A stretch of DNA of 64,000 bases from Amphiura filiformis. Lineage: Eukaryota > Echinodermata > Ophiuroidea > Amphilepidida > Amphiuridae. A program made the translations under genes and the position numbers. Below, piece after piece: positions 19,079 to 63,064 of this stretch; position 1 is the stretch's first letter; every line of letters begins with the position of its first letter. The notes under the pieces are model-generated. The model was not told the DNA's origin and did not search any database. It saw only the letters and a program-made list of their open reading frames with translations. Location: positions 29,412,128 through 29,476,127 of the forward strand of contig NC_092628.1 of NCBI RefSeq assembly GCF_039555335.1, given 5' to 3'.

Positions 19079-19196
19079 CTGAAAGTCAAATAACACGATA
19101 TGAACAAAGAAGTAGATCAATAATTACAAATAATGTTTTGTTTTGCTAACTCAAATTTTGTGATGTTACTTATTTATTTAATGACGAAATGGTGTA

Positions 19197-23500: not shown

Positions 23501-26500
23501 TACGTCATAATTTAGAACAATAGTTTGCCTATTTCCTAATAGACTACATAATTACCACTTATGTATTATCCAGTTAATAGACCAATTATTAGCTATTATT
23601 GGAAATCTAATTTGGTTGGGTAAAAAACATGCTACATGTTGCTGAAAATTATTGATTGAATTAGATCAAAATAATTTTTGTTCCAAACGTCACACTTTTT
23701 ATATACTTTTGTGTGTGCTCATGGCGTACACCAAATCAGTTTGCGGAACCAAGTTTTTAGCTTGACTTCAACGCCAAGGGGATTAAGTTCCCGTAAAATG
23801 GTCTGGTTTTACTTGAGCCAGCAGTATACGATACTTCTGGAAGAGCAAAGCAGGTGCATAACATTTTTATATATAACATGTCATAGGTTGTGCCTGGTAA
23901 GAGATGGGGTAGGGAGGAGGAGAGGAGGGCATTGGAAGTGGACAGGAGGTGCTTTGCTGGTAGCCAAGGGGGGAATCTTGTCTTCCTTCTTGACCCTCCC
24001 CTTTTGGATGCTGGCCGCCGTGATATTTTACGCTTTTAGGCCTTTTTCTGCCATTTTAAGCCCATTTTTGTAAACACGTTTCCCTTTGAGAATCGGCCCA
24101 CGCCCTCCTAAAAGAAAAACCCTGACAAAATCACTGGGGAGGGGGAAACAGGAGTGCGAGTGGGTAATTATAGGAGGGTCAAGTTTGAGAGAGCAAGTAC
24201 AGATAGAGGGGAGAAGGAGGGGAAAATAAGGAGAATGTAGGGAAGGGGAAACAGAAGGGGAAGGCGGAGAGAGATTCAGAAGGAGGGGAAAGAAATAAAG
24301 AATATGTATTTCATTAGGCTTTGCGAAGTAAATTGGAATATGAAATTGACAAAGCTGACGAGCCTTTATTAAATAATATTATATATATAGGCCTATAACT
24401 ATCGTAAGAATATTAATTGAAACGTATAGGGCCTAGCTAGTTTCAAAATAATATGATAAGGAGATTAACGCTGGGTCCCGACATAATCCATGTTGAGTGG
24501 TATCGCGAGTTCATTCATGTTTACTCAAACGAAGCTCTTAAGGTAGAGTCTTTTGTCTTGAAGTGGGACTAATAACCACTTGACTAAACAAAAGAGAGAC
24601 ATTTGGATGTAGTCGGTTACAAGCTCTTACACATGCCCTTGTAGCTCCTTGTTTTGAACGCACATTGATACACACGTCCCGAGTTTAAGCGACAAGACGC
24701 TGTTGTTGCAGTAACCAACCATACGTTCGCGTTGGAGTAACTTTGAGCAAGAAATCCAATCGATATTTCTGAAGTTGCCGTTCCAGTTAAAGTAACTTCA
24801 TTCCGCAAAGTCTCTATTATTCCTCATAGGTGCACCGTAATGCTCCCTGACAGGAACTGAAATATTTCTGAGTGAGTATCAGTTTATTGAATTTGAAAAG
24901 AACCTTTTTACAAATGAATGAACTATGATAAATCTGTCTCAAGACATATGCATATGTTCTCATTTATAATCAATCCTAATTATTGTACTTACCCAGTTTC
25001 AGCGGCAATGTATTCTTCAATTCCTAACACAGTCACTTCGATATTCTCCAATAGTAATACGACGTAGTCGAGGGCAGTAGCTAGGTTAACTTCAAATGCC
25101 TCCTTGTCAACCACCTCCCCCAATACCATCAAGGTAGACATATGGTTGGATAAGTCTTGTTAAAAGAAAGAAATACACATTTTCTTAGTGAGGAAGAGAA
25201 CTGTGTAGTAACGCCTCATGTATCTGAAAGTTGGTTTGATCGCGATTAACAATGCTAAAAGCTTTTAACTTTTGGAAGGTTATCTACATTTTAGCAGTAA
25301 TTTCACATAAAATCCTGTTCACTATATAAGTCACATATAGCCTACCTATACTACAATACTCCCCATAGAAGCCGTCATTGCAGATGCATTGATATCCATT
25401 TGATTTTTCTTCAGTTTTTTCACATTGTCCTTCAACACACGAATGTACTTCACAGGGATCTACAAGGATATCACAGTTATCACCGGTATGAACAACGTCA
25501 CATTCGCATCTGTGAAGTAAGTAGGAAAGGGTAGAAATATAGACTTCATTAATTGGATAACGATGTGTCTTTTTAATTCAAACTTGAATTCCGTACCTTT
25601 GATATCTTCAGAAAGCTAGATCTGCTTTCAGCACATTAAGATATAAACACAATATCATGCGCTCTTTGGTAAGGTTCAAATACACCAACTCACATATTTT
25701 CTGCCGAGCACTTAGATAATCGATAAAACAGCACCAAATATTCAGAATTTTTAAGTTTATGAATTTGTGACGAATTTCAGCAAAATATTATTATTACTAT
25801 AATTAAATAACTATCGTTAACATATGGACACACGTGCACAGCAACAATTCCAACTTACATTATCGGTTAATTATTTCAGCGGAACGTAACTACCATTGTA
25901 TATGTTGTAAAAATCATAGAGCTCATACCTGTATTTTCCAAGCGAAGGTACGCACGTTCCCATAAGGCAAGGAGAACTCTGACAATAATCCATTTCCTCA
26001 CTGCAATTTACCCCAGAGTAATCTTGTTCACATTGGCACACTCCATCAACACAGATACCATTTGTACAACGGACCTTTTCACAAAGATCACTTTCTGTGT
26101 CACAATTCGTGCCTTCGAATTGTTCATCACAAATACATACAAATCTGTTCAATTCATCTTGGCAAGTCCCGTGAATGCACGGAGAGCTGATGCATTCATC
26201 GATTTCTTGATCACATGTATTACCAATATATCCTGGTAAACACTCGCAAATGAATCCGTTGAGTTGATTACGACAAGTTACGAAATTCTGACACGGTGAG
26301 CTTTCACACTCATCAATGTCTTGTTCGCATTGGTCCCCACTTGTTCCCGGTGGACAGATGCAGATGTATCCTTTCTTTTCGCCTGCATTCAGATCTACAC
26401 AAGTACCTGAATTCATGCACGGTGCACTATAGCATTCATCGATATCTATTTGACAAAGATCCCCAACATATCCTGGTCGACAATGACATACAAATCCTGC

Positions 26501-29500
26501 AAGTACATCCTCGCAAATAGCATCGTTTAGACATGGAAAACTCTCACATTCATTTATTTCAATCTCACATGTATCGCCTTCAAACTCTTCAGAGCAAACA
26601 CAATGAAATTCATTGAAATCGTCATAACAGGTCCCACCATTCTTACACGGGTTCGACATGCATTCATTTATGTCATATTGACAAAATATGCCATCGTATC
26701 CTGGAGGACACACGCACCAGAATTGATCAATGTCTTCAACACATGTAGCCCCGTTCACGCAAGGTTGACTCTCGCATTCATTGTGGTTTTCACTGCAGTT
26801 AGTCCCCTTAAATCCAGTAGGACATATACAATAATAACCAGCTACCATATCTATGCAGGTCGCGTTCTCTCCACAAGGATTTTTCGCGCAGTCATCAACA
26901 TTGATACCGCATGCATCTCCGATGAATCCATCTTTGCATTCACAACGATAGTCATCAATAAGATCAATACACGTTGCACCATTTACGCAAGGAATACTTG
27001 AACATTCATCAATATCTCTAGAGCATGTGAGACCCTCATATCCAGGTTGACATATACAATGGTACCTATTGATGCCATCTACACATGTTGAATTGTTCTC
27101 GCATGGTGTACTTGAGCACTCATTGATATCAGTGTTACACACATCACCTGCATATCCTGACGGACATTCGCACCAAAACCACCCTGTTTCATCGCGACAA
27201 GTCCCACCGTTCAAACATGGCATACTTAAACACTCATCCATTTCGGTAGCGCAAGTGGTGCCTTCATAACCCACATTACAAATACACTCATATATACCAT
27301 TTCCATCGACACAAGTTGAATTGTGTTGACACGGTTGACTTTCGCACTCATCAATATTAATATGACAAAGTTCACCACGGAATCCAGAATTACATATACA
27401 GGTGTGGTGTCCGTTACCCTCAATGCAGGTCCCGTTATGAAGACATGGTGACGAAAGACACTCATCGATATCAACTTGACAAAAGTCTCCTTCAAAACCT
27501 GCAGGACAGTTACAAAGAAACCCATGGAATAAATCTACACAAGTGCCATCGTGTTGACAAGGATCGCTTAGACATTCATCAATTTCTGTTTCACAAAACT
27601 GACCTCCAAAACCGGGCTGGCACACACAATAAATGCTTGTATTGTGTGGCTCATTTGGCATGCAAGTGGCGTTATTTTGACACGGATAACTGATACAGGG
27701 ATCCACTTTATCTTGACAATTAATACCTTCATATTTTGGCGTACAAATACAAGTGTACTCGAGGAAATCATCTACGCAAGTTGAATTATGTTGGCACGGA
27801 TTACTAACGCATTCATTCACCTCTTCCTCACATTGTGGGCCAATAAATCCATTTGGACATACACAGACATAGTGATCTAATTGGTCTATACAAGTGGCAT
27901 TATTTCTACACGGACTGTTAAGACATTCGTTGATTTCCTCTTCGCAATGAGTGCCATGGTACCCTGGAACACATTCACAGTCATAACCGGGAGAATTGAG
28001 TTTGTTGGCACACGTCGAATTATGAAGGCACGGTGTACTGATACATTCATCAATCTCTTCTTCGCAATGTGTTCCTTGGAAACCGGGAGAACAAACACAT
28101 CGGTAACCTAAAAATTCATCTACGCAAGTGTGATTATCTCTGCAAGGATTGCTGGCGCATTCATCTGTATTTCTCTGACAATGATCTCCTTCATATCCAA
28201 GTGGACATATACAAGTATAACCAGCGATCACATCTACACATGTTGCAAAATTCTGACATGGATTACTGACGCATTCATCGGTTTCAAGCTCACAGAACAT
28301 GCCCTCGTATCCTGATATACACAAACAGGAGAATTCACCAATCATGTCATGACAGGTACCGCCATTCTGGCAAGGAGAAGATGCACATTCGTTGATGTTA
28401 ATGCCACAGTTGACTCCTGGCAGAAATAAACAAATTATTCTTTGTGATATTAAATGACTTCGATAAATCCATTAAACTTAGCACTCAAGGCAAAAGATTT
28501 GAGACGACCTAACACCTAATTATAAGTGTCCTGCCTGAGAAAGTTTTTGTATGTAATGACTGGCTTAGAAGCAAATTTATCCGTACATCCTTGAATTGGA
28601 CCATATTATTCTAGAATGTTGGATTGATTTCTCCCCATCCCAGGATGGATTGGAATAGATATCATAAAATTTCGCTGGAAATTCAAATCAATAGAACAAG
28701 ACCTCAAGCATGTCATGGGAGACCTCTAAAACGTTGAACAGACTGGGTCGGGGAAAGTTGCATTATCAGAGGATTGTACCGTCATCGAACCCGGGAGACC
28801 TTCATCAGAGCCCTAGGCCTTAATTAGCGAGCAAGGTACTAAGTTAAGTTAGTCCAGTCAATAAAGGTGAATTTGAAATAGCGAAATATATGCAGATAAC
28901 GAAATGGAGGTTCATTTCCCTTTCGTCATGGTTAATTGAAACGATATAAACATGAAGTTATGTCCAAATATCGCAACCTATTCTACCTACCTTGGAATCC
29001 AACCGCACATATGCAATTATAAGCATTCTCTCTGTCGATACAAGAAGCGCCATTTCGGCAAGGATTGGACAGGCATTCATGGATGTCTTGGTCGCAGTTA
29101 TCGCCTTGCCATCCAGGAAGACATATCTTGGCACCTGTTGTCTCATCACAAGTATAATGGCCCCCGTTGTCGTCTTGAGGAACACAGTGAACTGAACAGT
29201 CTAGGTCGTAAAAGTTGTTCTGACAATAAACTCGTAATCTGATATCCATACTTTAAGTAATCAGAAAACAATGTTAAAACAAAGCATGAGATCAGAATTG
29301 TTCAGTATTTTATTGTAAAGCAGTATTGTCTTATCCAATATTTGAAGTTATGTTTTGCCGGATATTACACCGTCAGTATGCTTACTAATCTGTGGGTAAT
29401 GCTCGCACGTTGCTGAATACATTCAAATAATGAGTAAAAGTAATGCATGTAATAAACAATTTATTTTCTTTAAAAACTTTTACTTACTAAGACTGTCATT

Positions 29501-34594: not shown

Positions 34595-35270
34595 CTTAAG
34601 GGATCTGGAATGAGCGTTTTGAGCGTTTCGACAGTATTTTTTGTGGGACATGAGAGCACATCAGACATATCGAATTGCATTCTGAATACGAAGAATGTCT
34701 TTCTGATATCAAATAAGTTTAATTTTTTAAATTCACGATATAATACAAATTTTATGACAAATTATTAAAATTTGATATTTTTCACATTTTTGATATATAA
34801 CAGTCCTCGAAGTAAATTTTACAAATCTAATGACATATTCGTAAAGTGTATGTAGCTGGGAGGAAAGCCGACGATCAATTGAAAATTTTGACCTTTCATA
34901 TTGAAGATATGGATTTTTCCCCAAAAGACCTAATTTTTTTGGTGTTTTGGGAAAAAAATCCACATCTTCAATACGAAAGGTCAAAATTTTCAATTGATCG
35001 TCGGCTTTTCATCCCACCTACATACACTTTAAGTATAAATCATCAGATTTATAAAGTTTACTTCGAGTACTGTTAAATATCAAAAATATAAATTTTTAAT
35101 CATTTGCCATAAAATGTGTATTACATTGCGAATTTCAAAAAATCAAAATTATTTGATATCAGAATGACATTCTTCGTATTCAGAATGCAATTCGATATGT
35201 CTGATGTGCTCTTATGTCCCACAATAAATACTGTCCAAAGGTTCATACCCCTTCCCTTAAGGAATATGCA
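34595..35270. repeat. AAGGGATCTGGAATGAGCG hairpin MITE family, copy 1
   Basis: Family of ~650 bp with inverted ends (GACAGTATTTTTTGTGGGAC versus TCCCACAATAAATACTGTCC) and an inner palindrome around GACGATCAATTGAAAATTTT. Further copies: 36640-37240, 40945-41066 (fragment), 43275-43700 (diverged, inside a lipoxygenase intron) and 60012-60688 (inside the ankyrin gene). Confidence 0.8.
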
Positions 35271-36639: not shown

Positions 36640-37240
36640 TAAGGGATCTGGAATGAGCGTTTTGAGCGTGTCGACAGTATTTTTTGTGGGACATGAGAGC
36701 ACATCAGACCTATCGAATTGCATTCTGAATACAAAGAATGTCTTTCTGATATCAAATAATTTTCATTTTTTGAAATTCACGATACAATACAAATTTTATG
36801 ACAAATTATTAAAATTTGATATTTTTCACATTTTTATATAGGAAAAGCCGACGATCAATTGAAAGTTTGACCTTTCATATTGAAGATATGGATTTTCCCC
36901 AAAGACCTCATTTTTGTTGGTGTTTTGGAAAAAATCCATATCTTCAATACAAAAGGTCACAATTTTCAATTGATCGTTGGCTTTTCATCCCACCTACATA
37001 CACTTTAAGTATAAATCATCAGATTTATAAAGTTTACTTCAGTACTGTTAAATATCAAAAATATCAATTTTTAATCATTTGCCATAAAATGTGTATTACA
37101 TTGCGAATTTCAAAAATCAAAATAATTTGATATCAGAAGGACATTCTTCGTATTCAGAATGCTATTCGATATGTCTTATGTGCTCTAATGTCCTACAATA
37201 AATACTGTCCAAACGTTCATACCCCCACCCCTTAAGGACT
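36640..37240. repeat. AAGGGATCTGGAATGAGCG family, copy 2
   Basis: Second, slightly shorter copy in the intergenic region between gene B and the lipoxygenase, in the same orientation as copy 1. Part of the central palindrome's left arm is lost. Confidence 0.75.
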
Positions 37241-38323: not shown

Positions 38324-38790
38324 TCAAATGCTTATAGAATTAGGGATGAATTTGGGATTTAGTATGTTGTAGTCTATCTCAGGTATAGCGTCCGGATCAC
38401 CCTCGAGCTGTCGGATGACGAAATCCTCGCTTCGCCTAGTTATCTTCACTATTTGTTTGTCGATAGCTGATTTGAACCTGCATTATGAAATAATGAGTGA
38501 ATGTGAAATGCATAATGTGAATGAAATTGTTCCTTTCTGATTTCTGTTTTTTCTTTCTTTGTTCTATCGTTCTTTAAGTACTTTTTTTCTGTTTGTTCTC
38601 CTCTTTCTTTCTTAGTCTTGAAATGTATGCTAAATGTGTTAAAAAGTGAAGTCTTTTTTTCTCTTTTTTTTTTTTCTTTTTTCCTTTTTTCTTGTTTCTT
38701 TTTTTTCTTTCTTTCTTTCTTTCTTTCTTTCTTTTTTTTTCTTTTTTTTCTTTCTTTCTTTTTTTTTTTCTTTCTTTCTTTCTTTTTTTT

Positions 38791-38838
<48 letters not shown>

Positions 38839-41800
38839 TCCTTCTTTCTTTCCTCTTTTTTTATCCTTTCTGTTTTTGAGGTTTTTTCATCTTTAGTTCA
38901 TTCTTTGGGTCTTTTGTTTTAACTTTTCTTTCCCCTTCGAAATACGTACTTCGCAGCTGCTTCTGTCCCCACAGGATCATATTGGTATTGTTTCTCAAAG
39001 TCACTGAGGTAATTCAAATCGGGATCACCATGCTGACTTAACAAGTTCGAGATCTTCATGCTTAAAAGGGTTTGTTCTTTGGTTGGTAATACTTGCAGAA
39101 TATCCTCCTCAGATCTTATGTCCTGAAAAATGTATAACCATCAATAAAGGTTCCGCATATAAATTATATTATTTCAATTTGATTGATTTATTCATAATAT
39201 TCGATGATAATTGGATTTCTTTTTAGAATTCACAGTGGCTACTCTTAACTAGAACATTGCATCGTATTGTTAAATATAAACCTTTGTTTCGCTAAACAAA
39301 GTGGAGTAGATAAGCTTGATGTGTGGAACAGAATATCTATGATTAAAATCATCACTTCAGTAAAGGCATTTGATTTATGGGTGAAAATGTCTTCTTTAGT
39401 GATTTTTGTCAGCTGTTTTACTGGAAATTTGTCGACCTAACATTTTTCGGGCCACATAATAAACTAATTTTTTTTCTTCAAAAACTAGATAAAAATATGC
39501 TTTAAACCATCAATTTAGCAGTTATGAGAGCCAAAGGTTTCCATAATTCCAGGGTTAAGGCCAACCGTATTTGGTTATAACCTTTATTGTCCTGTTACTT
39601 GGTCACCTCAGTGACAGATAGAAAACATCAGGGAGTTCAAATTATGAAGTGAAAATGCACAATTTGTTTAAAGCGGCAGTAACGTAATAATTTACTTCAC
39701 CTTGTTCCTTGGAGGGGCCCCATGTAGCAAACTCGGGTAGTTTAGCGGGAATCCATATTCTTCGTATTGTCGGAAGTTGACAGCAGCATGACCGACACTG
39801 CCTGTGAAGATGATCGACGTGACGACGCTTATTACTTGGTCTGCTGTGGAAAAATGGCCAACTCTTTCCTCCTTCGTTTGACAGTTTGCGTCGTCTGCGT
39901 CTGGCTCGTCCCAACATCCATAAGACGTTTCCACAGTTTTAGTTGGGATACCCTTGTCAAACAATACGAAATAAAAGCTTTGTAACATAGCTGCATTTTC
40001 TTATTACATGATTTTTGTAATTCGGTTGTTTCCTTTTTATTTGCTGATTATTGTTCTTTATTGAGTTAACAGCACACAGCAGCATTGCATGGCAGAGAAT
40101 AGCTCAAGATAAAATAAATTGGGAAGTTGGTGAAGCGGAATGAAGTATAGCTAAAGAACAACAATATTCGAGTAGGTACGATACAATTAATCTATAGAGG
40201 GCTCGCCCTAAGTAGGTAGACGAGGTATTGTTGGTCGAAGCAGCCAAAAAATAGATTTTTATTATCTAAATCAATATATTATTGAAAAATAACACTTTGA
40301 TGTTTTGCAAAAGTTCATTCTGCAAATCATATACTTGCTTGATTTGTTGTTGTTAATAAGCAATGTACGTTTTACAACATAACTCGAGAATCTGTGATAT
40401 TTGAATTCTTCTACATACTCGCTATGAAATGATCAATGCAATTTTTGCCAAAGCTCACTACCATTCGCAAGATGCTGTGAACTACCAAATCGCAACAGTT
40501 TAAAATAGTTGCTGACCTTAAGTCTCGTCATTCATGCTTTTGGTTTAATACATGTATAATGGTTGTGTATAGCGCAAGTGCGGGTGTGTAGGTGTTTTGG
40601 TTTTGGGTGGCTGCTTTTGGTGTGAGCGGTTGTAGATTATTTTCAGGGGTGGGGTGCCGGGTGTACACATACACATCATACGGAAGAGTTGAGGGGTTAC
40701 CTTTATTCCACATCCTCCCTCGCTAAGTTTTTCTTTGTTGCATTTCTTGTTTAGCATTTTTGCCCATGCTTGAATCTCATGATCATTTTCCAGCGTGTCC
40801 GTTTCTGTTTGGAAGCAATAAGACATCCTCGGTGAAGTTCTAAAAATGACTATATATTTAAATTATTGTAAATATGAATAAACATAGCATGCATAAGTAT
40901 TGCTTTTTAATGTATAACGTTAATCATTTAAAATCTGGGGCCAAATTATTAAGGGATGGGGTATGAACGTTTGGACAGTATTTATTGTGGGACATTAGAG
41001 CACATCAGACATATCGAATTGCGTTCTGAATACGAAGAATGTCCCTCTGATATCAAATAATTTTGATCACGGGTATCTGGCAAGGTGTTAGCTACCATTC
41101 CATATCACACAATATGTAATGTAGGACAATGGCTTCTTATGCCTGACCAATGAACCATCGAGCATCCTTTTCAGCGATATGATTCATAAGGTTACATTGG
41201 CTTTTGCATTACCGTGTGAAGAAAGCAGCTTTACTTTGTTGCATCTGTCTGTTGTATACGATATTTCTGATCATGGGGTGCGAGTTGAGCGCAGACTTAT
41301 ACGCCCGCGTCATTGACTTACGTAATCGCGGCTAAGGTGCAGTTTCTAAAATTTTGAAGAGACGTCGAGAGACCGGAACTACTACACCTAAACCAAGGTC
41401 AGGTCGGCCCCGAAAGACAACAGCCAGGGAAGACCGATCGCTCCTAAGACTTTGCCGCAATGGCCGCACGAAGCCTGTATCTCAGCTACAAACAGAATGG
41501 CTGAGGTCCATAAACGCGCCTGTTACCAGGAAACTTGCGAAAAACAGACTGGTTAGTGCAGGTTTTCGCACAAGACGACCAATAAGAAAGCCAATACTTC
41601 TGCAAAGACATCGGCATGCGCGCTTACTTTGATCACAGAGACATGGGAACTTTACAGTAGGCCACTGGCATAATGTGATCTTCACTGACGAGGCCCGGTT
41701 CCTCCTCTACAGACAAGGTGGCCGATTCAAAGTCTGAAGACAGGTTGGTCAAGCCCTACTTGAGGATTATATCCTGCCTAGAGTCCAGGGAGATGGTGGT

Positions 41801-44800
41801 GGAATCACAGTATGGAGAGCATTTCACAGTAGTTCGAAATCACACCTCTACATGCTAGAAGGACACATGAACCAGGACCAATACCTGCATGTTCTTGGTA
41901 CAGTTATGCTTCCGTTTGCGAGGAGAGACTTCAAGAACAATTTCGTGATCCAAGATAACAGCACTGCGGCGGACAGAGCCCTACCTGCGAAGGAATTCCT
42001 TGAAAATGAGAATGTAGAACACCTGGACTGGTCACCTTTGAGCCCGGATATGAACCCTATACAGAACTTATGGGCAGAAGTATCCCGCGGGTTAGGTAAC
42101 ATGAACAACCAACCAATCACCATGCAGGAACTTAGATACACCCTCAATGCTTGCTGGCGAGATATTCCACAAGGAACCTTTGAAAACCTGATCGAAGGAA
42201 TGTCACGTCGCGTACATGACCTTGAGCTGGCAAGGGGTAGACATACCAAATATTGAGTTGTGTTTTCTCAAGCAAGAGACTTATCTGAACAAGTCATAGT
42301 GAGAGTTTAAATTTTTGTCTAAACAATAAAATTTACTAGTGTCTTTAATCTCATTTTGTGATACAAAGAGACCGCTAAAAAGTGTTGCGATTGTGTGATC
42401 CTTCCATTGTAATGCGCTTCCTCAGGTAATTCTTTGTTTAATTGTCAAACTGTGTAATATAAACAACAAATGACATTTGTATCTTTCAATTAAATTCAAC
42501 TGAGCACTACTCCAGAACAATAAACCTGTTCCTAATATGATTGAAAACTGCATTTGATACAAAAATAAAAATATTCCAAACTTTTGTCCATGACTGTATT
42601 TGCCTTTGTCTTGAAAATGATATCACTCAAAATGATATCAGATATTTGAGCTATTAACCTCATCAGTCATACCTTTAGCATAGTAGTGTTCAACCACTGC
42701 CGTCACATATTCCTTGATGATTCTATATAAATCCAGGGCATCGTCACGGAACGTGTAGTTGGGTAGGTAGTATTCGTCTGAATCCGGGTATTTCAGTCCT
42801 ACTCCTCTATCTTTAATGTCTTCCTCAAGATTGCCTTCCTTATCTAGCTTCCATGGTGCACAGCTCCGAAACCCTTCGTATCTACGACGGACAATTTCTA
42901 ACAATCCTTTCACGCCAATAGTCATCACAATATCAAAAGATCCCCCTTCGCTTATGAGTAAATCCCACGCTTGCCTGATCGAGAGAAATCAATGAGGGGC
43001 AATGAGGGGCAATGAAACGAACACTGTCCTTTTAAATAGTCATAATTATACATCCATTTAACATCTGACGAATATAAATGACAAATGTGTTAAAATGAAT
43101 GACAGAAGACTAAATTCAGCAGCCATCGCCACACGAGACGAAATTGAACACAAATTTGACGAATATCAATGATACAAATGTGAAATATAATGATACAAAT
43201 ATGAAATTGGTTTTGAGTTTGTGTGACTTCGATTATTAGGACGAATTTAAACTTTCCTTTTTATGAATATGAATGATATAAGTGCGAAATACTCTGGGAA
43301 AACCTGTATTATGTACGTAAAGTGCTGGGAGGAAAAGCCGATGATCATTTGAAAATGTTGACCTTTCGTGTTGACGATACACATTTTTCCCCAAATACCT
43401 AATTTGTAAAGATATTTTAGGGAAAAATGTATATCTTTAATACGAAAAGTAAACATTTTACTACCAGCTACATACACTTTAAATAAATATATATCATTAG
43501 ATTTATACATTTTACTTCAAGGACGGTTAAATATCAAAAATATAAATCTTGAATAATTTGCCATAAAATTTGTGTTATATCGCGAATTAAAAAAAAAAAA
43601 AATCTGATATCACAAGGTCATTCTTCGTATTCAGAATGCAACTCGATATGTCTGGTGTACTCTCATGCCCCACAAAAATACTGTGCAAAGGAGGGTGACC
43701 GAACCCTTGATGTAATGATAATTAACTCACTTGTTGATTTGGAGTGTGTATAGGAAGTGTGGTGCCATCAGACGGTACAATGGATGTGATATGGACACGG
43801 TCTGACCATGGAGGTATATAAATAAATGGAGAATGATCGCCAGAATTCTAATCTCCTAAGTGGAGATTATCCCGTTACCTCTATTCAATGAGTCACCAAA
43901 CTTGAATTGACCAGCCACTTCAGCCAAGCTATTGATCTCCACGATGGTTATGAGCCTCTACCATGGTTCATTGATTGTCACTCCCAAAATTTCCTCATAG
44001 GAATTGACCCTACATTGACCCGTACCGGAAGCCTTGTAAAAGAGACTGTATAATGACGTCAGCTAGTCAATCAGATGTTCAAAGTCACAAGTTTTGATAG
44101 CTTATAGTTTCAATGTATGATTGTGCGAAAACCCGAAGAAATTTGGATGTTCTGTTCTCAAGTTATGAAACTGTTTTCTACACTAGTTGTGCCGTAACTT
44201 GACAAATATACTTAGTTTTCATGTTCATATATTAAGCTTTTAAGGGGTCTGAGGGAGTTCAAATATAGTGCAAATGAAAGCAAAACGTTTTTACCTTCCG
44301 ATTGTGAAAAGATTATGTTGGGCCAATTTGGGCCATTTGAGTTACGAGCGAGCAAAATTTACCGGAAGTACTTCGAATTCAAGCAAAAGTGATGATCAGA
44401 CAATCTTTTCTAGAGAGAATTGTTAGGCCCTATACGGAATGTATAGGCCCTACATACTTTGTTTAAACAGTTTCTCATAGTTTAGTGTATGATAACCGTG
44501 ATTTGGGTTGAAGCTTCGGGTCAAATTGATTGAGTGCCATGACGGATATGTCATATTATTGCTTTTTAAACTTTTAAATCTGTATTGTCATGAAATCGTA
44601 TAGGCCGCCTAAATCATCATCATTAAACTTCTCATTTTATAATAAATAATTATCAGTATTTAGGCCTAAATGATTATATTAATATTATTAGGGGCTATCA
44701 TTTTCTTTGGAGGAGGGGTTTCAAATATACGGGGGGGTCATAACTTTTTGGGAAAAAAGTCATAATTCAATTTTTCATGACCAAAATGTAGGAAGTCACA

Positions 44801-47800
44801 AGATGACAACAGATAAGGTGTTTCTTTTTTCAAAAAGACTGATTTCTTGATGCAATTTAACTGAGACTAGTATACCTAAACCTAGGTATAGGCCTACTAG
44901 TCTCAGAATTTAAGCACTCAATTTTTGGCGAAAATGAGATTTTGATATCAAAATTTTATGAAACATGAGCACTTTCCAATAAGTATAAACTTCATTTTAC
45001 CCCATTGAAATCAATGGCCAGTGAAACAGACTTCACAATGTAATCAACTTAGCATAATCAATATAAACCTGAAAATGCCCATTCAACAATAATTGGTCAT
45101 AACCAACGTAGTACAAAAGAGGCTTGGCTGGATCATTCTCCATTTATTTATATACCTCCATGGTCTGACGTAGCGCAAGGTACATGGATTCCATGAGTAG
45201 ATGAGTAAATCCAAGATGAGACACAGATTGATGATAAGATGCATCTGCATTATTGAACCACATCTTAACTAGAAGCCACGTATATGGATTGGCGTTGTCG
45301 GGTTTGAAAACCTAAAATTCAATAAACACTTTAGAGTAGCGTTATAGTAAAACAATTTACTTTTTGTACATCGTGACGAGCTGCCGTCCTACTGTTTCAA
45401 TAACCTGCATTTTTGTCCGGATATATAAAATTTATTATCCACGCATATTCACGAGCTTGTGGATTTGGAATTGGAAATCTATGAAGAACATGACGTGATG
45501 TCATGTCACTTCACAGAAATTAAACCCTTCCACTAACGGAATAAAAAAAAGCGCAGTGATTTATAGTGCGCTACACACAGGCATAACGTCTAGACGTTGA
45601 TCCACAAGCCTCAGCACACTTAACAGGTCCCCTTCATATCTACACACATGGGTGCGCGCGAGTAAAAGCAGACACCTCATTCACGCCCGTCCCCTAACAA
45701 ACCCCCTCACCTCCACACGCACATCCCCACCTGCCACCCTCTTACCGGGTTGTCGCTATCATCCTTGCAATCGAGGTGCCGTTTGAACAGCTGAATGGCG
45801 ACAGGCATCAACTTCTTCTTCTCAGTTACAAAGAAGAGTGCTATCGGAGCTGTGATCTAAAAGTAGGAAAGGAAAAAACAGAAAGTTTTCAGTTGATTTA
45901 AAAGAAGCACTTGTACAAGACTCATCAGACCAGTCAAGTCTTGGGGCTTTCGTTATGTTTTGTAATCCCTTCCATTCATGGTACAGCTAAATACACATCT
46001 ACGTCATTTCCAAGCGTCACGTGGATGGGTCTTTTACACATTGGTATCGAAATACTTACCATTCCGTTTTTACAGGGCAAGACACTCAGAATGTCCGTGT
46101 AGTCTACCATGTACAGGCGTTTACCGTCGATTGCGGTTTGTACGGTACATCCCTCCTCCATATATGGCAGGTGCTCGTCAGCCTCCACTCGAATACTGCA
46201 ATAAAATAAGTACTTAGACACCCGGTCTTGCATGGCCAACTCCATTTTTTTGGGTACTTTAACGCATAAACCAAACGTAACTAAATAACTGATGATGTTG
46301 AGGAACATATCAGCTATTACATACTTTTTGAATTTAGACAATTGACCCTTGCATTTCGTCCAATTGTTTCTAAATGTGACCTTTAATATATTTATACATA
46401 GTGAGTGAATTTTGTGTTGTGGATGAGTCTCAAGAATAAGCACTCTCATATGACTTGTGTGAATCATCCTTTAAAAAGATGTCTTACGAGTTTTTGATGT
46501 CGTCATATGACGTGACACGTCGTATAACCACGGGGTTCGTACCAATCAGCCTTTGTTCAGCAAACATCTCATCCAAATCGCTCCAACGGTTCTTCTTGAC
46601 AGAATTCAAATACCGCTTCACAGACTATGATATCAGGAATAAAATTTAAATATCTGTCTGAAACTTGAACTTATAGTTTTAATGCAAATAAGTCTCAACA
46701 ATATTGCAGTTGCTAAGCGGACAAAAATCCCGAGGGGAATGTGAACGTTTGGTGAATGTGATCTTTTACACTATTTTGCCCTAAAAGAAGAGGCTATTAG
46801 CCATTTTGGTAACTTTTGTTACCTTCAAGATTACTGAGTAGAAGTCGTGGTAGCAGTAGTAGTACGGTGGTGGTAAAAGTAGCAGGAAGAGCAAAAGTAG
46901 TTTTGATTCTTAGAGAATTAAGGTATTGTTTTTAGCTGCTGGAGTACATCTATCGTCTCATATAACACGGGCGATATCATTATTTTAAGTAAAACAACGA
47001 AGCGAAGCCAAGTTGTTTTACGCCAAAAATAATATGTTATATGAGACGATAGATGCACGAGAGCTGCTAAAAACAATACCTTTATTCTCATTCTTAAACA
47101 CTTCAATTCAAATAAATATATATTAATCATAAGTATACCAACATTTTAATCAAATTAAATCCTATATTTTACAAAGAATTGCCTAGGGCTTACTATCGAC
47201 CAGTCTCGTTGTTTCTATGCATCTCCGATTGGTTCAAATAGCGCGTACGAATATCGTGTCGACACGTACGTGCTTACGTGTGTGATATCGTGTCATATCA
47301 CACGAATAAGAACCAATAAAATTGCAAGAACATTTTCAAGTGCTTAAGAATTGTACCGCTCAGACTGTTCGGCTGACTGTCTTACCTGTGGCTCGGCGAA
47401 AGATAGAATAGGAACTTTGTATATGTTTCCTGTTGTTTGCAAAGAGTGAGTCCACGATCCCGTGAGATGGGGCAAAAATCTTGCTTTCCATTGGTTAATC
47501 ATACCCGTCTTCACAAACGTATTCTATAGATATATGAAAGTAAAACGTAAAACAGGTTGTATGGAGGTTTTCTCACCTTACTACGTTCTTTGGGGTTATG
47601 CCTAAATAGAGTAGCTTCTTATAATTCGCCCATTATTACACTGTTCCATCCACCATATGAAAAGAGAGCCTCGAACTGGCAATAGACAAGAAAAGAAGGT
47701 AGGTTTTCTCGCATATGACGGAACCATGAAATGGGCGAATACATTGTAGTATGTCAACAAAGCTTCATGGACTCAACTTTGTGATACAATCCGATGAAGA

Positions 47801-50800
47801 ACCTGTTTGCTATGACATGACTGCCTTTTTTTTTACGTGCGCTCCCGTAGAAATCGTAGAAGTTCACTTACAAGAAACATTTGCCTTTCCAACTTGTTAC
47901 TGTAACAATATACAATGAGGACACGAGCTTTTAAAATTCGCACCTACATGTAATTTAATGGCTATATTTAATAGTGGAGTGGTCATATGCTGTTCCTCTA
48001 AGCCTATCGATAAATCAGTACCTTACCTTTGTTTCTAAACATTGCCGTCACATTATCTATAGCTGTCAATCAACTGATAAACTTGCGGCTCAAGCAATTA
48101 ACCGATCCCGCAATGCAATGGGTGGTACACACTCTTTCCATTCCATCGACTCGACATTGCTCTTATGACTCTCGCACTTCTGCTCTGATATCTGTCTTGT
48201 GCACAGAAAGTACGCTATTGATGAAGCAACAGAACTACTTCACTATGTTTTCAACTGAATCCCAAGCTGTGGGCGCTTCAATGGGTCGATCAGTATCTAT
48301 AAATTGATATAAAATCATTAATCATGAGTAAACTTACCTTGAAGTAGGATTTGCTGAAGGACTCAGATGCTTCATTGAGGTCATTCTGAAAGATATGAGG
48401 GTACACTTGTGAGTAATTTACCTTTGATTATATATCTTTGTTTACAATTTAAAGCTACTTCATTGAAAGTTGGGAATCTCTTGTTTCTCTCTTTTATACC
48501 AAACTAGTAAAACTTTAAAGTCTCAGTTCTATTAAAATATCATTCTGTCACATTCACCTCATTTTAGCCACAGGGTTTTCCATATTATGCAAAACAATGA
48601 TCGTTCTGTGAAATATGTGTATTTCCCGATCAATAAATGGGTCTGATTGACTTTGTTATTGTGATTCATATTGATTTCATGAGAGATGATTCTCATCTTT
48701 AAAGATATAGCTGTAAATGCAAAGTTGAATGATCAAATCAAATCAAAAATAATCTACATTCAAGCTATTTAGAACTTTGATAAATTCAACAGATTCAACA
48801 CTATGAGCAAACCCTGAAAATGAAGAGGATCTAGTCAATACAGGAATTGATGTTGGACAGAGAGCTGAAGTAGTCCATCCTTTTCACCTTGGCACTGGGT
48901 TTCCTGTCTTTGCCAGAAAGATCGTTGGTGACCTTCCATGGTGTAGTTGATCTCAATTTGAGATCGTCCATACATTTCAATAAAAAAAAGATAGAAAGAC
49001 TATAAAAATTATCTACTAGTTAAATTAACAGCTGATTACTAAAAACACTATAGGTATTCATTATAAGCCATCCGTGACGTACCTTAACTGGTATGCTATC
49101 TGCCGCACACACTGAGAATGCGTATGTAGGCCTCTCCATCTGAATCCCTTCTTTTCGTTGCTGTGGATTTTTGTCGTGTTGAGGGAGGATCGCATCCGCT
49201 TCTTGAATTACCTGAAAGAGCAAAGTTATTTTTCAAGCAGGATGATACCTGACGTATGTAAGATAAGACAGGGGTAGCCATCCGTTTGTTCGACTCTCCA
49301 CTTGTCAAGTTCGGCACACAGTAAACCCTCCACTAATCATAACCCTATTAAAAGTCAAGAGTAAATCCATTTGTTCATGCTGTTGATTGGCTCAAAAGGT
49401 AATTCTCATGCTGAAGGAATGCGGAGGCATGTGTCCTGTCCAGTTATTGCATAATATTAAAGCTTAAATCTATTGCATCAACAAACATAAGTGGAGTCTT
49501 TCCAGCATGACTTTAGAGCGGCTTTAGAGATCACTCACCATGCTCACTGGCTGGATGACTTCAAATGATTATCAATCAGTTCGTTCCACGTTGAGCATGT
49601 TGAGTGAAAGGGGTGTTCGTGTATCATCTCATAGGCATCATATGTTGATTGATACCTCAACACCCCTCTCTCACTCAAATAGAACTGACATTTACTGGTA
49701 CATAATTATGAAATAATCAATAGACAAGAACTCTTGATATTGGCGAAACCGAAACGGGAAGCGGTCATCAAGTTTTCCAATCATTTATTACTGTTTGCAA
49801 GTTACTGAATTTAACGAAACTCCATTCCCGATCAATCCATTTTCCCATCCATCTATCTAAAGACGAATCCAATTTCACGCATTCCTACACCTCAATGACA
49901 GCCATAGCTGGGTCACCGCTGAGTATATCTCACCTGAAATGTGAAATGATGCGTCTTTGGCGGGAATTTTAAACTGCATTCCATCACCCGTGTTATACGT
50001 AAACAAAAGAATGATGAACGTTTACACACAATACAATATAACATCAATTTTTAAGCGGCTTTAATCCAGCCAATTGGGCAGTCACAACACCAGTTTGGTA
50101 CGCCGGGGACCCAGTAATGGCCGAATAAATTCTGACCATCACATGGCACGTTGGATTCGTCTATAATATATCTTCTTTCCTTACCTGACTTTTCATTGTT
50201 ATCTTGCGATGAAATGGAAAAACCTTGGCAGCTTGGCCTTGTCCATCTTCAGGATTGTCGTCATCACTGCAAATTTTTTCGACTGTCACCGTTTCCACAT
50301 ACCACGTTAAATCAGTTTTGGTTCCTGTGCGTTCAACCCATACCTCAAGCTGCTCTATATCTCGTACGCTCGTTTTTTCCACATAAATCTCGCGCGTTGA
50401 GCCTGGCCAAAAGAGGAAGCCTTCACTTTTTGCCTCCTCGCTTTTTGTTGTTCCATCTTTGTCGTACAGCCTTACACATATTTTCCCACTGCCAAAGCCA
50501 AACTTATGCACGTTTTGTCCTTCGTATGGTCCAGTTTTAATAGTTACCCGGAACTTGTTGTCTACCGAATTAACAAACAGAAACATTAGTATTAGTCTGT
50601 TTTTCTGTGCTTAAAACGGGCGTAATACATTGTGATTTAGAGGCTTAAATTATATATTTACATGAAGAACTGGAACATCCAAATGTATTTTAATTTTATT
50701 TTTCATCATTTATATCAATTAATTTTAGACTACGGGAGACAGGTGTTTGAAAGGGCGCTTTGTTAGTAACAAAATCAGCATTTCAGAAAAGAACAAAAAC

Positions 50801-57638: not shown

Positions 57639-60600
57639 GCAATACAAGCTATGGCTGACGAGGAAGAATCGAGTCTTCCGCCAAACATGGCGACATCTTC
57701 ATTTAACGGAAAAAGTGATACGTCGATTGGAAATTCCAGTGATGGTATTAATAATAATAAAGGACGAACTGAATCATCGGAGTCAAGTCAGCCACACTCT
57801 GTAACATTCACCACCGACCATGTAAGGAAACAGTCTGTACGTGGGGGCGGACAGAAGAAACTTGGACCATTAGATCGAAAACGCCAGAGAAACGCAAGTC
57901 TGAAAATTAACCATAGCATACGGGATAAGAGAACTTTTAGGGAATCAAGTCAGAAGAAAACGTCTCATAACGGGCTAAAGCAGGATGTTACAAAGGAGAC
58001 AGGACAGAAAACAAAGAAACGTTTCTTTTCTTGGAAAAAAGGAGGGGAATCGAAGGACAATGGGGATTTACATCTTGTTAATGTAAGTTCAGCGTAATTA
58101 AAGACACATTCAGATATCTGTCAATCCCGAAGTACACCATTATATTGTGGATTTAATTAGATTAAGGGGGTACTACACCCATTGCATTTTTTTGCGGTTT
58201 TTTTTGTTGCATTTTGTGAAGAAATGAGAAAAAAAATCGACAAAGTGTATAGAAGGGTGGGTAGAAGCCAAAAGGTGGTACATCACTGATGTTTTAAATT
58301 CGCTTCATTTTGGAAAGCTTACTATCAACGGATTTCGTTAAAATTTTGGATATGTGTTGCTAACGCAACAGAGAAATACTGTTGATATGTAAAATGGGAA
58401 TAGTGGTTCCTGATTTCTTTTATGACTTCAAGAACTTGGTGCTCCACACCTATCAAAAACGAACTGGTTAAAATGCTTCTATTTTCAATGTTGAGCTATA
58501 TTTTGTATTTTTAACTAGCGACATTATTTCACTGAAACTTAATTAAGCCATAGGTAACATGTTACCACAACCATACTACCGCAATGTTAAAAAAAAATGG
58601 GATTTCTTGTCACTTATACCACCATATTAGGTAATTTTTCGTAAGCTTCACGTTTGTGATTTTGGTAACTAGTTTACCTTTATTTGTCCAATCCATTTCA
58701 ACTAGGCAATCTAAATAATTGTACTCACCATTTACATCCCAAGGTATGTTAATATACCGCTCCAAAAAGTATCCTTACACTTGGAAAAATAATCACAATT
58801 TCAAAATTGAACAATATTGAGGTAAGTTGGTTTTTGGAATAGATGAACTGCCTAATCCGGCACATTATGACACCCCATTGAATCCAATGTGACTTCAAAA
58901 AGCAAAGTTACAGGCATTTGATTAGACGAAGGTCCAGTTTTAAAAGTGACAAACTGGCCTATTCAAATCGCCACGGACTAGACATCTGGTTTGAGAGTGG
59001 ATTTACTAAAATGGTTTAAAAGTACTTTGTATGTAGAGATATTTTATAAGTTCAGGACTTGAGGTGATGAACATATTTATGTACTTCATAAATTTGCAAG
59101 AAAAAGAGAAGCGGGGTACTGATGAAAATGGTATTACATACCCATAATGCATCATTCTCCTAAATTATATCCTATTCTTAATGCACATTACAGAACACAT
59201 TGGTAGACTATAATTGAAGACAAAGATAAAAAGACTAGTTTGCGTCTGACGTCAAATTGGTTAATTAGCGCGTAAAGGAAGGTCGATTTATCTGGTGAAA
59301 AGGAATAGCAGTGAATGGCGAAAAATTACGTACTTTTACAAGGCAAAAAGCAACTTTTCCAGGTATTGTTGACATGGTGCCTTCGCGAAAGAAAGTTTCC
59401 TAGTATAAAGACCTAACTTTTGAGATGGTTTGTATGTTTGAAGGTGTAAAATTAACAATAAGGCGCCCGGTTTTACCGCCGTGTTCAGCAACTCATATCA
59501 TCACGACACTTGTAAAACAAACCGTGCTCGACTGTGATTGATAGGTGACGTCAGACGCAAACTAGTCTTTTTATCGTTGTCTTTCATTATAAAACAAAAT
59601 GAAGAAGATTCGCTTCCTTTTACATTTCTTTTATTCGCCCGACAGCTTGACACAATTTTCAGCCATACTAACCTATCTTGGTTGTGGCGTGATGAATGCT
59701 GTGGTGTGAATAAACTAGATGAGAATGGGCTAGCCCTACTACATGTTGCTGCGCAGTCGAATGATGTAGAACTTATAGAAGAACTCATACAAAAAGGAGC
59801 CGGTAAGAAACACATACAACCCACCCCACTCACCATTTAAAGTGTGCTGAGGCTTGTGGATCAACGTCTAGGCGTTGTGCCTGTGCGTAGCGCACTATAA
59901 ATCACTGCGCTTTTTTTTTTAAACACAAACACACCCAAAAAAAAAAAAAAAAAGAAAAAACAATCTCCAACCTCGGATACACATGTATATCGAGGGTTCA
60001 GAACCAGCAAGCCTTAAGGGATCTAGAATGAGCGTTTATGGCGTTTCGACAGTATTTTTGTGGGACATGAGAGCACCTCAGACGTATCGAATTGCATTCT
60101 GAATACGAAGCATGTCTTTCTGATATCAAATAACTTTCATTTTTTGGAATTCACGATATAATGCAAATTTTATGACAAATTAAAATTTGATATTTTTCAA
60201 ATTTTTGATATATAGGCCTAACAGTCCTCGAAATAAATTTTATAAATCTAATGATATATTCTTAAAGTGTATGTAGCTGGGAGGAAAAGCCGACGATCAA
60301 TTGAAAATTGATACCTTTTATATTGAAGATATGGATTTTTTTTCCCAAAAGACCTTTTTTTTTTTTGGTGTTTTGGGAAAAATCCATATCTTCAATACGA
60401 AAGGTCAAAAGTTTCAATTGATCGTCGGCTTTTCATCCCACCTACATACACTTTAAGTATAAATCATCAGATTAATAAAGTTTACTTCAAGTACTGTTAA
60501 ATATCAAAAATATAAATTTTTAATGATTTGCCATAAAATGTGTATTACATTGCGAATTTCAAAAAATCAAAATTATTTGATATCAGAAGGACATTCTTCG

Positions 60601-63064
60601 TATTCTGAATGCAATTCGATATGTCTGATGTGCTATAATGTCCCACAATAAATACTGTCCAAACGTTCATACCCCTTCCCTTAACTCACTATGAATATGA
60701 CTAGTTCTCACGAAATCAGCATAAAATAGGCTTCTTGCTCTGGTCTTTGAAAATCAATATTTCCTCCACAATGACTTTTGTTTTCTATTGAATTTTGTCA
60801 TGATTAATGAAATGTATATTCTGTAGTGCCCTGGCGACTTTATGCTCATTTTTTGGGAGCGTGTGATTGTGAGTTGTGGCTTTCTGGCTCTCAACCTTCG
60901 AAGTGGTGACCACATTTTTTTCTTAGGCAATGGGGAGGAGGGGAGGCAAAATGCCCACATTTTGTGTGGGGTTCGGGGTGGGTGGGGGTTAAAATTATGA
61001 GAAGGTGGTGAGGGGGTGCCCATCCCTCCGATCATTACGGCGATTTGATATTATTTTAGATAATACTAACCGCCTAGACCCCGGGATATTATTTGCCATT
61101 TTGTATTTTTAGATATCAACATAAAATCATCTGTGGACGAGGCTACACCTCTTCACATAGCCTCTAAGTACAATTGCGCAAACGCAACAGAGGTTCTGCT
61201 GCTACATGGTGCTGACGTAACCGATGCATTAACCAATGGGCAAACTGCTCTTCATGTATGCTGTCGGCGAGGACATTTGATGCTTATCAAGGTATGGCCG
61301 TGTCTGTGTTTGGATTAGCTTTAGGGTAAATAGATGCATTAAGGTTTAGCAACTATTTTAAACTGTTGCGATTTGGTCAGGGGCGTAACCAGACCTGACT
61401 TTCGGGGGGGGGGGGGGCAAGATTGAAAAATTTCCCAATTTTTGACCCAAAGTTGTATTTATTTATGTGCGCATCGCGAGCGGCTTGCCGCGAAGTGCTA
61501 AACGGGTGGGGTCCAGGGGCCCGCCTTAGGGCCCTCTGGTGGGGTCCAGGGTTTTTGGCATATTAGAAGCTAAAAATCCAGTGTTCAGAGTACAAAATTT
61601 CACAATGAAAGTAGTATAGATATTCTTCCCTCTTTCTTTCCCTTTTCTCTTCTCCCTTCCCCTTTTCTCTTCTCCCTTCCCCTTTTTTCTTCCCCCTTTT
61701 TTCTCTTCTCCTCCCCTTTTTTCTTCCCTCTTTTTCTCTCCTTCCCCCCTTTTACCCTTCCCAATTTTTGGCTCTTCTTCCCAGTTTTTGTGTCCGGGGA
61801 GCAGCTTGCCCCCCCCCCCCCCCCCCCCACCCCCAATGGTTACGCCACTGGATTTGGTTCTTCACAGCATTTTGCGATTGGTAGTGAGCTTTGGCAAAAA
61901 TTGCATTGATCATTTCATAGCGAGTGTGTAGAAGAATTCAAATATCACAGATATACTATTGTAGCTACTGTGGCTCTTGAGTTATGTTGTAAAGAAGGCT
62001 GAAACAACAACACTTTTGTAAAACGTACATAAATCATTTACAACAATAAATCAAGCAAGTTTACAAAGATTTGTAGAATGAACTTTTGCCAAATATCTTA
62101 TTAAGTTATTTTTCAATAATTAAATTGAATATGATAATTAAAATCGATTTTTTTGGCTGCAATATGATGTCTAAAATCAGTAATAAATAGGTCTATAACT
62201 CCCCCGGATAACGGCAAGACAGTTTCGCGCTATATTACGGTGTGTGCCATAACACCCAGGTGCAATGGGAAGCTGTTAGGGGTAGTCACAGTCGTTGTAC
62301 TGATGAACCCTGCGCCATTTGTAGGCAGCAAACGTGGTTCCGACATACTCTAATAACGGCGGAATAAATGTAAAGCGCTTTGAGGCTGTTTACGGCATAA
62401 AGCGCTATATAAATATCTACATTTTTTATTTTTTATAACGTCAAGATAAGATAAGAGGGTCGTGGCAAATAAAATTCTTCTTGCTTGATTACAGATATTG
62501 GTAGAAAAGGGAAAATCGGATGTCAATTCAAGAGATAAAGACAAAACCACACCTTTACACCAAGCAATGATCAATGGCGAACTGGAAATATTTACATATC
62601 TGGTAAGTTTGTCAGACATAGGGAGATACTTAACACAAACGATCATATACGGGTATGCACCCCACAGATGCCCCTGAATTTGACCAAAACAGAGAGCTGA
62701 AAGTCCCACGATTTTGATAATAATATTTCAACTCTAAAAGACCCCAAAATTGCTCAATCGTCTCAATTCTATTTTTAAGCGATTTCGGCTTCTCACTAAA
62801 AACTATAATTTGCCCCGGGACTGCTGCTGGTTTACTCACCCTACGATGACGACCGTTGAATAATTTCAAATACAGCTGATACTTTGTAATCATTGCTGTA
62901 AAGTGTAAACAAATTTTGTGGTGTTAAATAGTCCTATATATTTTGTTCTCTTTAGGTGGAAAACGGTGCTGATATTTGCGCCAAAGACATCAATAACGAG
63001 ACACCACTGATGCTCGCAGCACAAGGTGGATTTCTTGAAATTGTCCAGTACTTCCTTACAATCG
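57639..63064 (+). CDS. Ankyrin-repeat protein, 5' part (continues beyond the window)
   Basis: Five exons: 57639-58082 (ATG 57651), 59646-59802, 61113-61291, 62495-62602, 62956-63064. Phases are 0, 1, 0, 0 and 1, with good GT-AG sites (e.g. AAT|GTAAGT, GCCCGACAG|CTT). The first 144 residues are Ser/Lys/Arg-rich and probably disordered (RGGGQKKLG, KKRFFSWKKGG). Ankyrin repeats then follow: DENGLALLHVAAQSNDVELI, DEATPLHIASKYN, NGQTALHVCCRRGHL, DKTTPLHQAMINGELEIF and NETPLMLAAQGGFLEIV. Intron positions fall between or within repeats, as is common for ankyrin arrays. A TRPA-type channel N-terminus is one possibility, but no channel domain lies in the window, so no function is assigned. Upstream in-frame codons exist from 57594, but the CAG acceptor at 57638 and the ATG at 57651 favour the start given. 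Confidence 0.8.
60012..60688. repeat. AAGGGATCTGGAATGAGCG family, copy in the ankyrin gene intron
   Basis: Near-complete copy with both ends and the central palindrome, in intron 2 of the ankyrin-repeat gene. Confidence 0.75.
61345..62160. repeat. Dispersed ~320-bp repeat split by a nested hAT-like element
   Basis: Third copy of the 40195/51825 family, interrupted at 61378-61850 by a hAT-like element. The outer repeat resumes at TTCTTCACAGCATTTTGCGA. Confidence 0.75.
61378..61850. mobile_element. Nested hAT-like element with 8-bp target duplication
   Basis: Begins CAGGGGCGTAACCAG and ends GGTTACGCCACTG, flanked by GATTTGGT on both sides (61370-61377 and 61851-61858). The interior has long G, C and CT-rich runs. 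The similar termini at 20747-21123 suggest the same superfamily. Confidence 0.78.
62200..62425. repeat. SINE-like repeat in the ankyrin gene intron
   Basis: Ends with TAAAGCGCTTTGAG and AAGCGCTATATAAAT followed by a T-rich stretch. This is a 3' end style common to short interspersed elements of marine invertebrates. Assignment is tentative. Confidence 0.45.

What the first reader, a model, noticed from the sequence alone, without database searches (positions are those of the whole stretch)
43731..45311. A transposon inserted in lipoxygenase coding sequence appears to have become a functional intron
Seen: lipoxygenase exon 9 (H389/H394 helix) and exon 10 ([10 protein letters not shown]) are separated by a 1358-bp element with perfect 33-bp terminal inverted repeats and a 5-bp target duplication (TCAGA on the gene strand). 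Deleting element plus one duplication gives CTACGTCAGACCGTG, an uninterrupted frame with 17 residues between TH and HP, the same spacing I recall for human 5-lipoxygenase. With the element present, a donor GAG|GTATAT lies inside its own terminal repeat. An AG acceptor is created by the duplicated target (TCAG|ACC). Splicing there keeps the frame and adds only three residues (TME, 412-414). Without splicing, a stop follows within four codons. Established: introner-like DNA transposons are known to make introns by contributing one splice site and using the target duplication for the other. Inference: this is a recent intron gain in an otherwise intact gene.
Basis: partly seen in the sequence, partly recalled or inferred. 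Interest (0 to 1): 0.92.

Follow-up and report, generated by a model that had tools for sequence, protein, structure and literature searches.

The report
Transposon-made intron in brittle-star lipoxygenase gene
In a brittle star, a 1.36-kb DNA transposon landed inside the coding part of a fatty-acid-oxidising enzyme gene and seems to be cut out of the RNA as a brand-new intron that leaves three extra amino acids, which shows letter by letter how introns can be born in animals.

Summary
A 1358-bp element (43806-45163) with perfect 33-bp terminal inverted repeats and a target duplication lies inside a lipoxygenase exon on the minus strand. The window is from the brittle star Amphiura filiformis: NCBI protein P0002 matches my exon model at 100% and contains LRQT-MET-VSISHP, so NCBI's gene model uses the same splice sites (a prediction, probably from the same assembly). 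The 119 other listed homologues, five A. filiformis paralogues included, lack exactly these three residues. Removing the element and one duplication restores the uninterrupted family sequence. Two database proteins that look like unspliced genomic readings (P0127, P0128) show the exon unbroken here, against an old intron colonised later. The donor lies in the element's repeat; the acceptor AG is the duplicated target. Of the GT-AG pairs tested, only this one keeps both flanks and adds fewer than 20 residues. No other break was found in the 14 exons modelled. Not shown: RNA evidence of splicing, other copies acting as introns, allele state. The two repeats would pair and bury the donor. Verdict: very probably a real transposon-born intron, a known process; no echinoderm case turned up in my capped literature searches.

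The parts
43806..45163 (-). 1358-bp non-autonomous DNA element inserted in the lipoxygenase coding sequence
   Evidence: perfect 33-bp inverted ends; flanking duplication; of stop-to-stop ORFs of 40 aa or more, none lying wholly inside it exceeds 58 aa
43806..43838 (+). terminal inverted repeat, right end on the gene strand; supplies the tract upstream of the acceptor
45131..45163 (-). terminal inverted repeat, left end on the gene strand; holds the donor GAG|GTATAT
43801..43805 (-). target duplication copy 2 (gene strand TCAGA); its AG is the acceptor
45164..45168 (-). target duplication copy 1 (gene strand TCAGA), kept in the exon
43802..45155 (-). predicted intron, 1354 nt, GT-AG
   Evidence: same junction in NCBI protein P0002; the only tested in-frame pair that keeps both flanks and adds fewer than 20 residues
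45156..45311 (-). lipoxygenase exon with the two iron-binding histidines (HQSVSH, GFTH); its last bases CCATGGAG come from the element
43731..43801 (-). next exon, starts inside target duplication copy 2, ends QIN at phase 2
50185..50559 (-). PLAT/LH2 exon of the same gene (5' edge approximate)
   Evidence: Pfam PLAT, below its curated cut-off; aligns to paralogue P0003
49083..49211 (-). lipoxygenase exon
48338..48385 (-). lipoxygenase exon
47386..47523 (-). lipoxygenase exon; NCBI model P0002 starts inside it
46488..46624 (-). lipoxygenase exon
46060..46195 (-). lipoxygenase exon
45746..45856 (-). lipoxygenase exon
42673..42974 (-). lipoxygenase exon
   Evidence: Pfam PF00305
40701..40804 (-). 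lipoxygenase exon
39701..39952 (-). lipoxygenase exon with [10 protein letters not shown]
   Evidence: Pfam PF00305
38950..39122 (-). lipoxygenase exon
38324..38477 (-). last lipoxygenase coding exon, ends NSISI and stop

Best explanation
A cut-and-paste DNA transposon copy without coding capacity inserted into an ancestral continuous exon of an A. filiformis PLAT-lipoxygenase gene and duplicated its target. The element's terminal repeat brings a usable 5' splice site (CCATGGAG|GTATAT); the second target copy supplies the 3' AG (TCAG|A) behind the pyrimidine-rich end of the other repeat. The spliceosome removes 1354 nt, and 9 nt (13 gained, 4 lost) stay in the mRNA, adding Met-Glu-Thr (equally Thr-Met-Glu) at the end of the iron-ligand helix. 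Shown: insertion anatomy, empty-site frame, absence of the residues in the listed relatives, and the annotated junction. Inferred: actual splicing, enzyme function, recent age.
For: Inverted ends and duplication. Empty site equals the family sequence. NCBI protein P0002, 100% identical to the model, carries LRQTMETVSISHP. Of the 120 listed proteins (of 879 found), 119 show a gap of exactly three residues there and score higher with the empty-site version; the exception is P0002 itself. All 53 solved-structure sequences listed match the empty-site peptide across the junction; by their ranges 49 of 53 have no length change and 4 (three human 5-LOX constructs, 5fno) differ by one residue. In one search, 77 GT x 71 AG combinations at least 60 nt apart gave 16 open in-phase products; 3 keep both flanks, and all 3 use the repeat's donor. 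Donor and acceptor scores lie within the range of the gene's 12 other introns. The other modelled exons are open, with the motifs [20 protein letters not shown] and NSISI (their iron-binding role is recalled). P0127 and P0128 read as unspliced genomic exons unbroken at the site (inference). The predicted structures put the extra residues at a helix end before a loop.
Against: No RNA read or cDNA was seen: protein searches with 200-aa and 91-aa pieces gave 6 and 1 hits, none named A. filiformis. P0002 is one record, may be computed, is probably from the same assembly as the window, and omits the open PLAT exons. The donor lacks G at +5; it ranks 9 of 79 GT sites and the acceptor 14 of 73 AG sites in the region (small training set). 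In the predicted RNA fold the donor is paired into the stem (37 of 38 positions of repeat plus duplication in register; repeat duplex -53.3 kcal/mol), which could hinder U1. Local model confidence falls to 76 at residues 211-220 of P0002, against 95-96 in the blocks 431-450 of paralogue P0003.
Confidence: 0.76

Rival explanations
1. Loss-of-function insertion: the element disrupts the gene, the RNA is not spliced productively, and the annotated intron is only the gene predictor's way round a frame break. The gene would be a young pseudogene or the element a segregating allele.
For: NCBI's model is truncated at its 5' end although the PLAT exons are present; no transcript fragment found; the donor is modest and buried in the stem; without splicing a stop is the fourth codon past the donor.
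Against: No other disabling change in the 14 exons and 761 codons modelled; the first coding exon was not found. The only tested splice pair that keeps both flanks and adds fewer than 20 residues adds just three; a random insertion needs an AG at the right place of the duplication to give this, which hints at selection. This last point is inference.
Confidence: 0.16
2. The element is removed from the mRNA by a route that recognises paired inverted repeats and is not the spliceosome ('SOS splicing' of DNA transposons in animals, 2025; recalled, not searched for in the library).
For: 33-bp perfect inverted ends that pair in the predicted fold; exonic position.
Against: A GT-AG pair with in-frame outcome exists at the edges. 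As I recall, that route gives imprecise junctions.
Confidence: 0.04
3. Old intron at this place, later colonised by the transposon.
For: The gene is intron-rich (13 introns modelled), and other transposon-like sequences lie in its introns.
Against: No intron sequence lies between exon and duplication on either side: the duplication is part of codons CGT CAG ACC of the exon. Proteins that look like genomic ORFs of relatives are unbroken here (P0127, P0128). The extra residues are repeat sequence and occur in none of the 119 other listed relatives. Real intron positions of relatives could not be read.
Confidence: 0.02
4. Assembly or mapping artefact.
For: Single reference genome, no reads seen here; P0002 is probably from the same assembly, so it is no independent check.
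Against: Perfect repeats plus duplication are the signature of transposition, not of a typical misjoin.
Confidence: 0.02

Closest known systems
Introners (intron-generating transposons; PMC9860276: abstract and results section read, further passages)
   Same: Insertion into an exon makes an intron; TIRs and TSDs; one splice site carried by the element and the other co-opted from the TSD (their Fig. 2C legend); extra codons can be left in the protein (their Fig. 2F-G legend, Aureococcus); aquatic host.
   Different: Introners there are multi-copy families of similar introns, which could not be tested here. This intron is 1354 nt, against family medians of 30-654 nt. Among animals and land plants that survey found Introners in only two groups, both animals; the word echinoderm has 0 occurrences in its main text.
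De novo intron made by maize Dissociation (Giroux 1994; seen only as a reference entry in PMC3443670; details recalled)
   Same: A single DNA transposon in an exon is spliced out with sites in or near its ends.
   Different: Plant element and mutant allele; here an animal reference genome, with the rest of the modelled gene open.
Transposon-insertion intron gains listed in PMC3443670 (passages): 35 events in Oryza, Drosophila, Oikopleura, Zea
   Same: Same class of event.
   Different: Other lineages; the model illustrated there uses AGGT duplicated on both sides (sites inside the transposon are named as an alternative), whereas here the donor comes from the repeat and only the acceptor from the duplication.

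Membership tests
Introner (intron-generating transposon family) | element boundaries coincide with, or lie near, the intron boundaries | tested here: met
   intron 43802-45155, element 43806-45163: 8 and 4 bases apart
Introner (intron-generating transposon family) | several introns of similar sequence in one genome | not testable with these tools
   no genome held; one copy in the 64-kb window; repeat core absent from the viral and prokaryote collections, which are not informative for this
Introner (intron-generating transposon family) | spliced in RNA | tested here: inconclusive
   NCBI protein P0002 uses the junction, but no RNA was seen
Class II TIR DNA transposon | terminal inverted repeats and target site duplication | tested here: met
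   33 of 33 bases, duplication TCAGA or GTCAGAC
Class II TIR DNA transposon | own transposase (needed for an autonomous copy and for assignment to a superfamily; non-autonomous copies lack it) | tested here: inconclusive
   no stop-to-stop ORF lying wholly inside the element exceeds 58 aa; those ORFs were not run against Pfam; superfamily unassigned
Spliceosomal GT-AG intron | donor and acceptor within the range of the gene's own introns | tested here: met
   donor 4.35 with 2 of 12 others lower; acceptor 2.03 with 4 of 12 others lower
PLAT-lipoxygenase | lipoxygenase domain, iron-ligand histidines, C-terminal isoleucine | tested here: met
PLAT-lipoxygenase | enzyme activity with the three added residues | not testable with these tools
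   needs expression and assay

The most novel reading that the evidence does not exclude
A. filiformis carries an active or recently active Introner family in an echinoderm: a transposon whose repeats hold a donor in both orientations, so that either orientation can yield a spliceable intron wherever the target offers an AG at the right place, with further copies already acting as introns in other genes.
Probability: 0.35. Interest if true: 0.85.

Novelty: new member of a known kind. Interest (0 to 1): 0.64.

Why it matters
Intron gains whose source can be read off the sequence are rare, in animals above all (PMC9860276, section read: two animal groups only). Here the ancestral exon, the inserted element, both splice sites and the protein scar are all visible in one locus of a lineage with a published recent DNA-transposon burst (PMC11310086, passages). 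That makes two open questions testable: whether animal intron gain goes through DNA transposons, and whether pairing of inverted ends helps or hinders splicing of a new intron.

Tried and rejected
Whole-genome look for other copies: not possible. The 26-base repeat core has 0 exact matches in viral contigs and 0 in prokaryote genome contigs; the element has no megablast match in plasmids.

Transcript evidence by protein search: two searches with 200-aa and 91-aa pieces gave 6 and 1 hits, none named A. filiformis; three of the seven carry no name. The single 91-aa hit, P0128, turned out useful as a probable genomic exon of a relative.

Published intron positions of lipoxygenase genes: the search listed 15 of 658 papers and none looked usable by title and abstract start. 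I recalled human ALOX5 exon sizes but did not rely on them.

First exon joins were off by a few bases and gave broken frames; corrected. One extra exon guessed (48971-48888) was dropped, because it has no AG acceptor at its start and paralogue P0003 has no matching segment by eye.

A letter-by-letter comparison of P0128 with the window exon (7 of 72) was out of register by one residue and is meaningless; the BLAST identity (82% over 62% of the query) is the one to use. A first spacing count mixed two histidines and was redone: 120 of 127 proteins show the usual spacing and P0002 is longer by three. P0006 was caught on a wrong histidine; alignment A1 gives it the usual spacing. Five proteins (P0099, P0100, P0125, P0126, P0127) lack the searched pattern.

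Superfamily of the element: left open. The palindrome-like GTC-N-GAC target and CATG end recalled P-type elements, but nothing was tested. PMC10901741 (passages) was looked at for transposon splicing and not used.
Full report
What is there. The minus strand of the window encodes a PLAT-lipoxygenase. I assembled 14 exons joined by 13 GT-AG introns; the 5' edge of the first is approximate and the first coding exon was not found. They give 761 codons without a stop, ending in NSISI. Between the exon with the first two iron-ligand histidines (45311-45156) and the next (43801-43731) lies a 1358-bp element with 33-bp perfect inverted ends. The gene-strand duplication reads TCAGA; because its ends are complementary, 7, 5, 3 or 1 bp are possible.

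Which organism. A search of 5.8 billion proteins with the 577-aa model returned a 100% identical 570-aa protein, NCBI 'arachidonate 12-lipoxygenase, 12R-type-like' of Amphiura filiformis, on a 102.7-Mb contig (P0002). Window G+C (36.9%) fits the published 36.67% (PMC11310086, passage). This is not independent proof of splicing: such models may be computed, and the record is probably from the same assembly as the window. P0002 starts in my fourth exon and leaves out the open PLAT exons, which align to paralogue P0003.

Are the residues new? Of 879 proteins found, 120 were listed; I aligned all 120. In 119 the three residues are missing by a gap of exactly three, and the empty-site version scores higher; only P0002 itself has them. 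The five best other hits are A. filiformis paralogues (45-49% identity) that read LRQT or LQQT followed by VS[IL]SHP. In alignment A1 (40 of the 120), 39 of 39 others have 17 residues between TH and HP, P0002 has 20. By match ranges, 49 of 53 solved-structure sequences align to the empty-site peptide without length change and the other 4 differ by one residue.

Insertion into an exon, not into an old intron. Outside element plus duplication there is no leftover intron: the duplication is itself part of codons CGT CAG ACC. Two database proteins support a continuous exon in relatives. P0128 (90 aa from a 1169-nt contig) starts with 18 unrelated residues ending in YYPILQ, as expected of a pyrimidine tract and CAG, then runs VFFPDD...[10 protein letters not shown]...LLEVN, E and stop, as expected of reading into GTAA. 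P0127 (26-kb contig) has an intron-like stretch elsewhere and then runs unbroken to LQIN, A and stop (both read). That these are unspliced genomic readings is my inference from the letters; their species are unknown and their DNA was not seen.

How the intron works. The donor GAG|GTATAT sits 8 bases inside the terminal repeat. The acceptor AG is in the second target copy, behind a 33-base repeat end without any AG. In a matrix from the gene's 12 other introns, the donor scores 4.35 (2 of 12 others lower, leave-one-out) and the acceptor 2.03 (4 of 12 lower). Within the region they rank 9 of 79 GT and 14 of 73 AG, so stronger isolated sites exist. But of 77 GT by 71 AG pairs at least 60 nt apart, 16 give an open, in-phase product, and only 3 keep both flanks; all 3 use this donor, and only this pair adds 3 residues, the others 20 and 21. 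Both ends of the element carry the same repeat, so a copy in the other orientation would bring the same donor. With a 5-bp duplication, 8 retained element bases and an AG in the duplication, the frame is kept only if the AG is at positions 3-4, as here. These last two points are deductions.

A complication. The two repeats pair in the predicted RNA fold (37 of 38 positions of repeat plus duplication in register; duplex -53.3 kcal/mol), which buries the donor GU. With 1.3 kb between them the donor would be transcribed first and could be bound before the stem closes; whether that suffices is unknown. The same stem leaves room for a repeat-recognising removal route ('SOS splicing', recalled).

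Comparison with what is known. PMC9860276 (abstract and results section read; passages) reports 27,563 Introner introns in 175 genomes, family median lengths 30-654 nt, cases where the element carries the 5' site and co-opts the 3' site from the duplication, and cases that add codons; among animals and land plants only two groups, both animals, have them. PMC3443670 (passages) lists 35 earlier transposon-insertion gains. PMC11310086 (passages) reports a 10-15 Ma repeat burst in A. filiformis, mostly DNA transposons; 'intron' has 0 occurrences in its main text. Literature searches, judged by titles and starts of abstracts in capped listings: 20 of 34 papers; 20 of 4,548; 15 of 12,813; 20 of 115; 13 of 13; 8 of 1,122; 10 of 47; none listed an echinoderm case, and (introner plus echinoderm) found 0 papers. 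Most subscription papers are not held, so an unlisted report is possible.

Verdict. The insertion into a formerly continuous exon is as good as certain. That it is spliced as annotated is likely but unproven here. The event belongs to a known kind. Its value lies in the clean anatomy, the animal host, and the prediction that more copies may exist.

Noticed in passing
34620-35260, 36663-37235, 60042-60684, and ends at 40949-41067 and 43689-43596: A repeat family with ends of about 95-120 bp, 85-96% alike, in three inverted pairs about 0.6 kb apart; a fourth, wider pair brackets lipoxygenase exon 42974-42673 and a transposase ORF.
   Followed up: partly
41738-42256: Transposase-like ORF (Pfam DDE_3, below its curated cut-off; Tc1/IS630-like by recall) in a lipoxygenase intron.
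   Followed up: no
50559-48338: NCBI's protein P0002 omits the PLAT and two further exons that are open in the window; the annotation looks truncated at the 5' end.
   Followed up: partly
676-3582 and 25871-28471: Two long minus-strand ORFs of many EGF-like repeats, 968 and 866 aa (naming from the letters).
   Followed up: no
18811-19116 and 20120-20425: Two nearly identical 101-aa minus-strand ORFs 1.3 kb apart, probably a tandem duplication.
   Followed up: no
44861-44906: A 46-bp palindrome (23-nt arms, 87% complementary) inside the element, perhaps a nested insertion.
   Followed up: no
about 38560-38890: Long AAAG-rich purine tract on the gene strand shortly upstream of the last lipoxygenase coding exon.
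   Followed up: no
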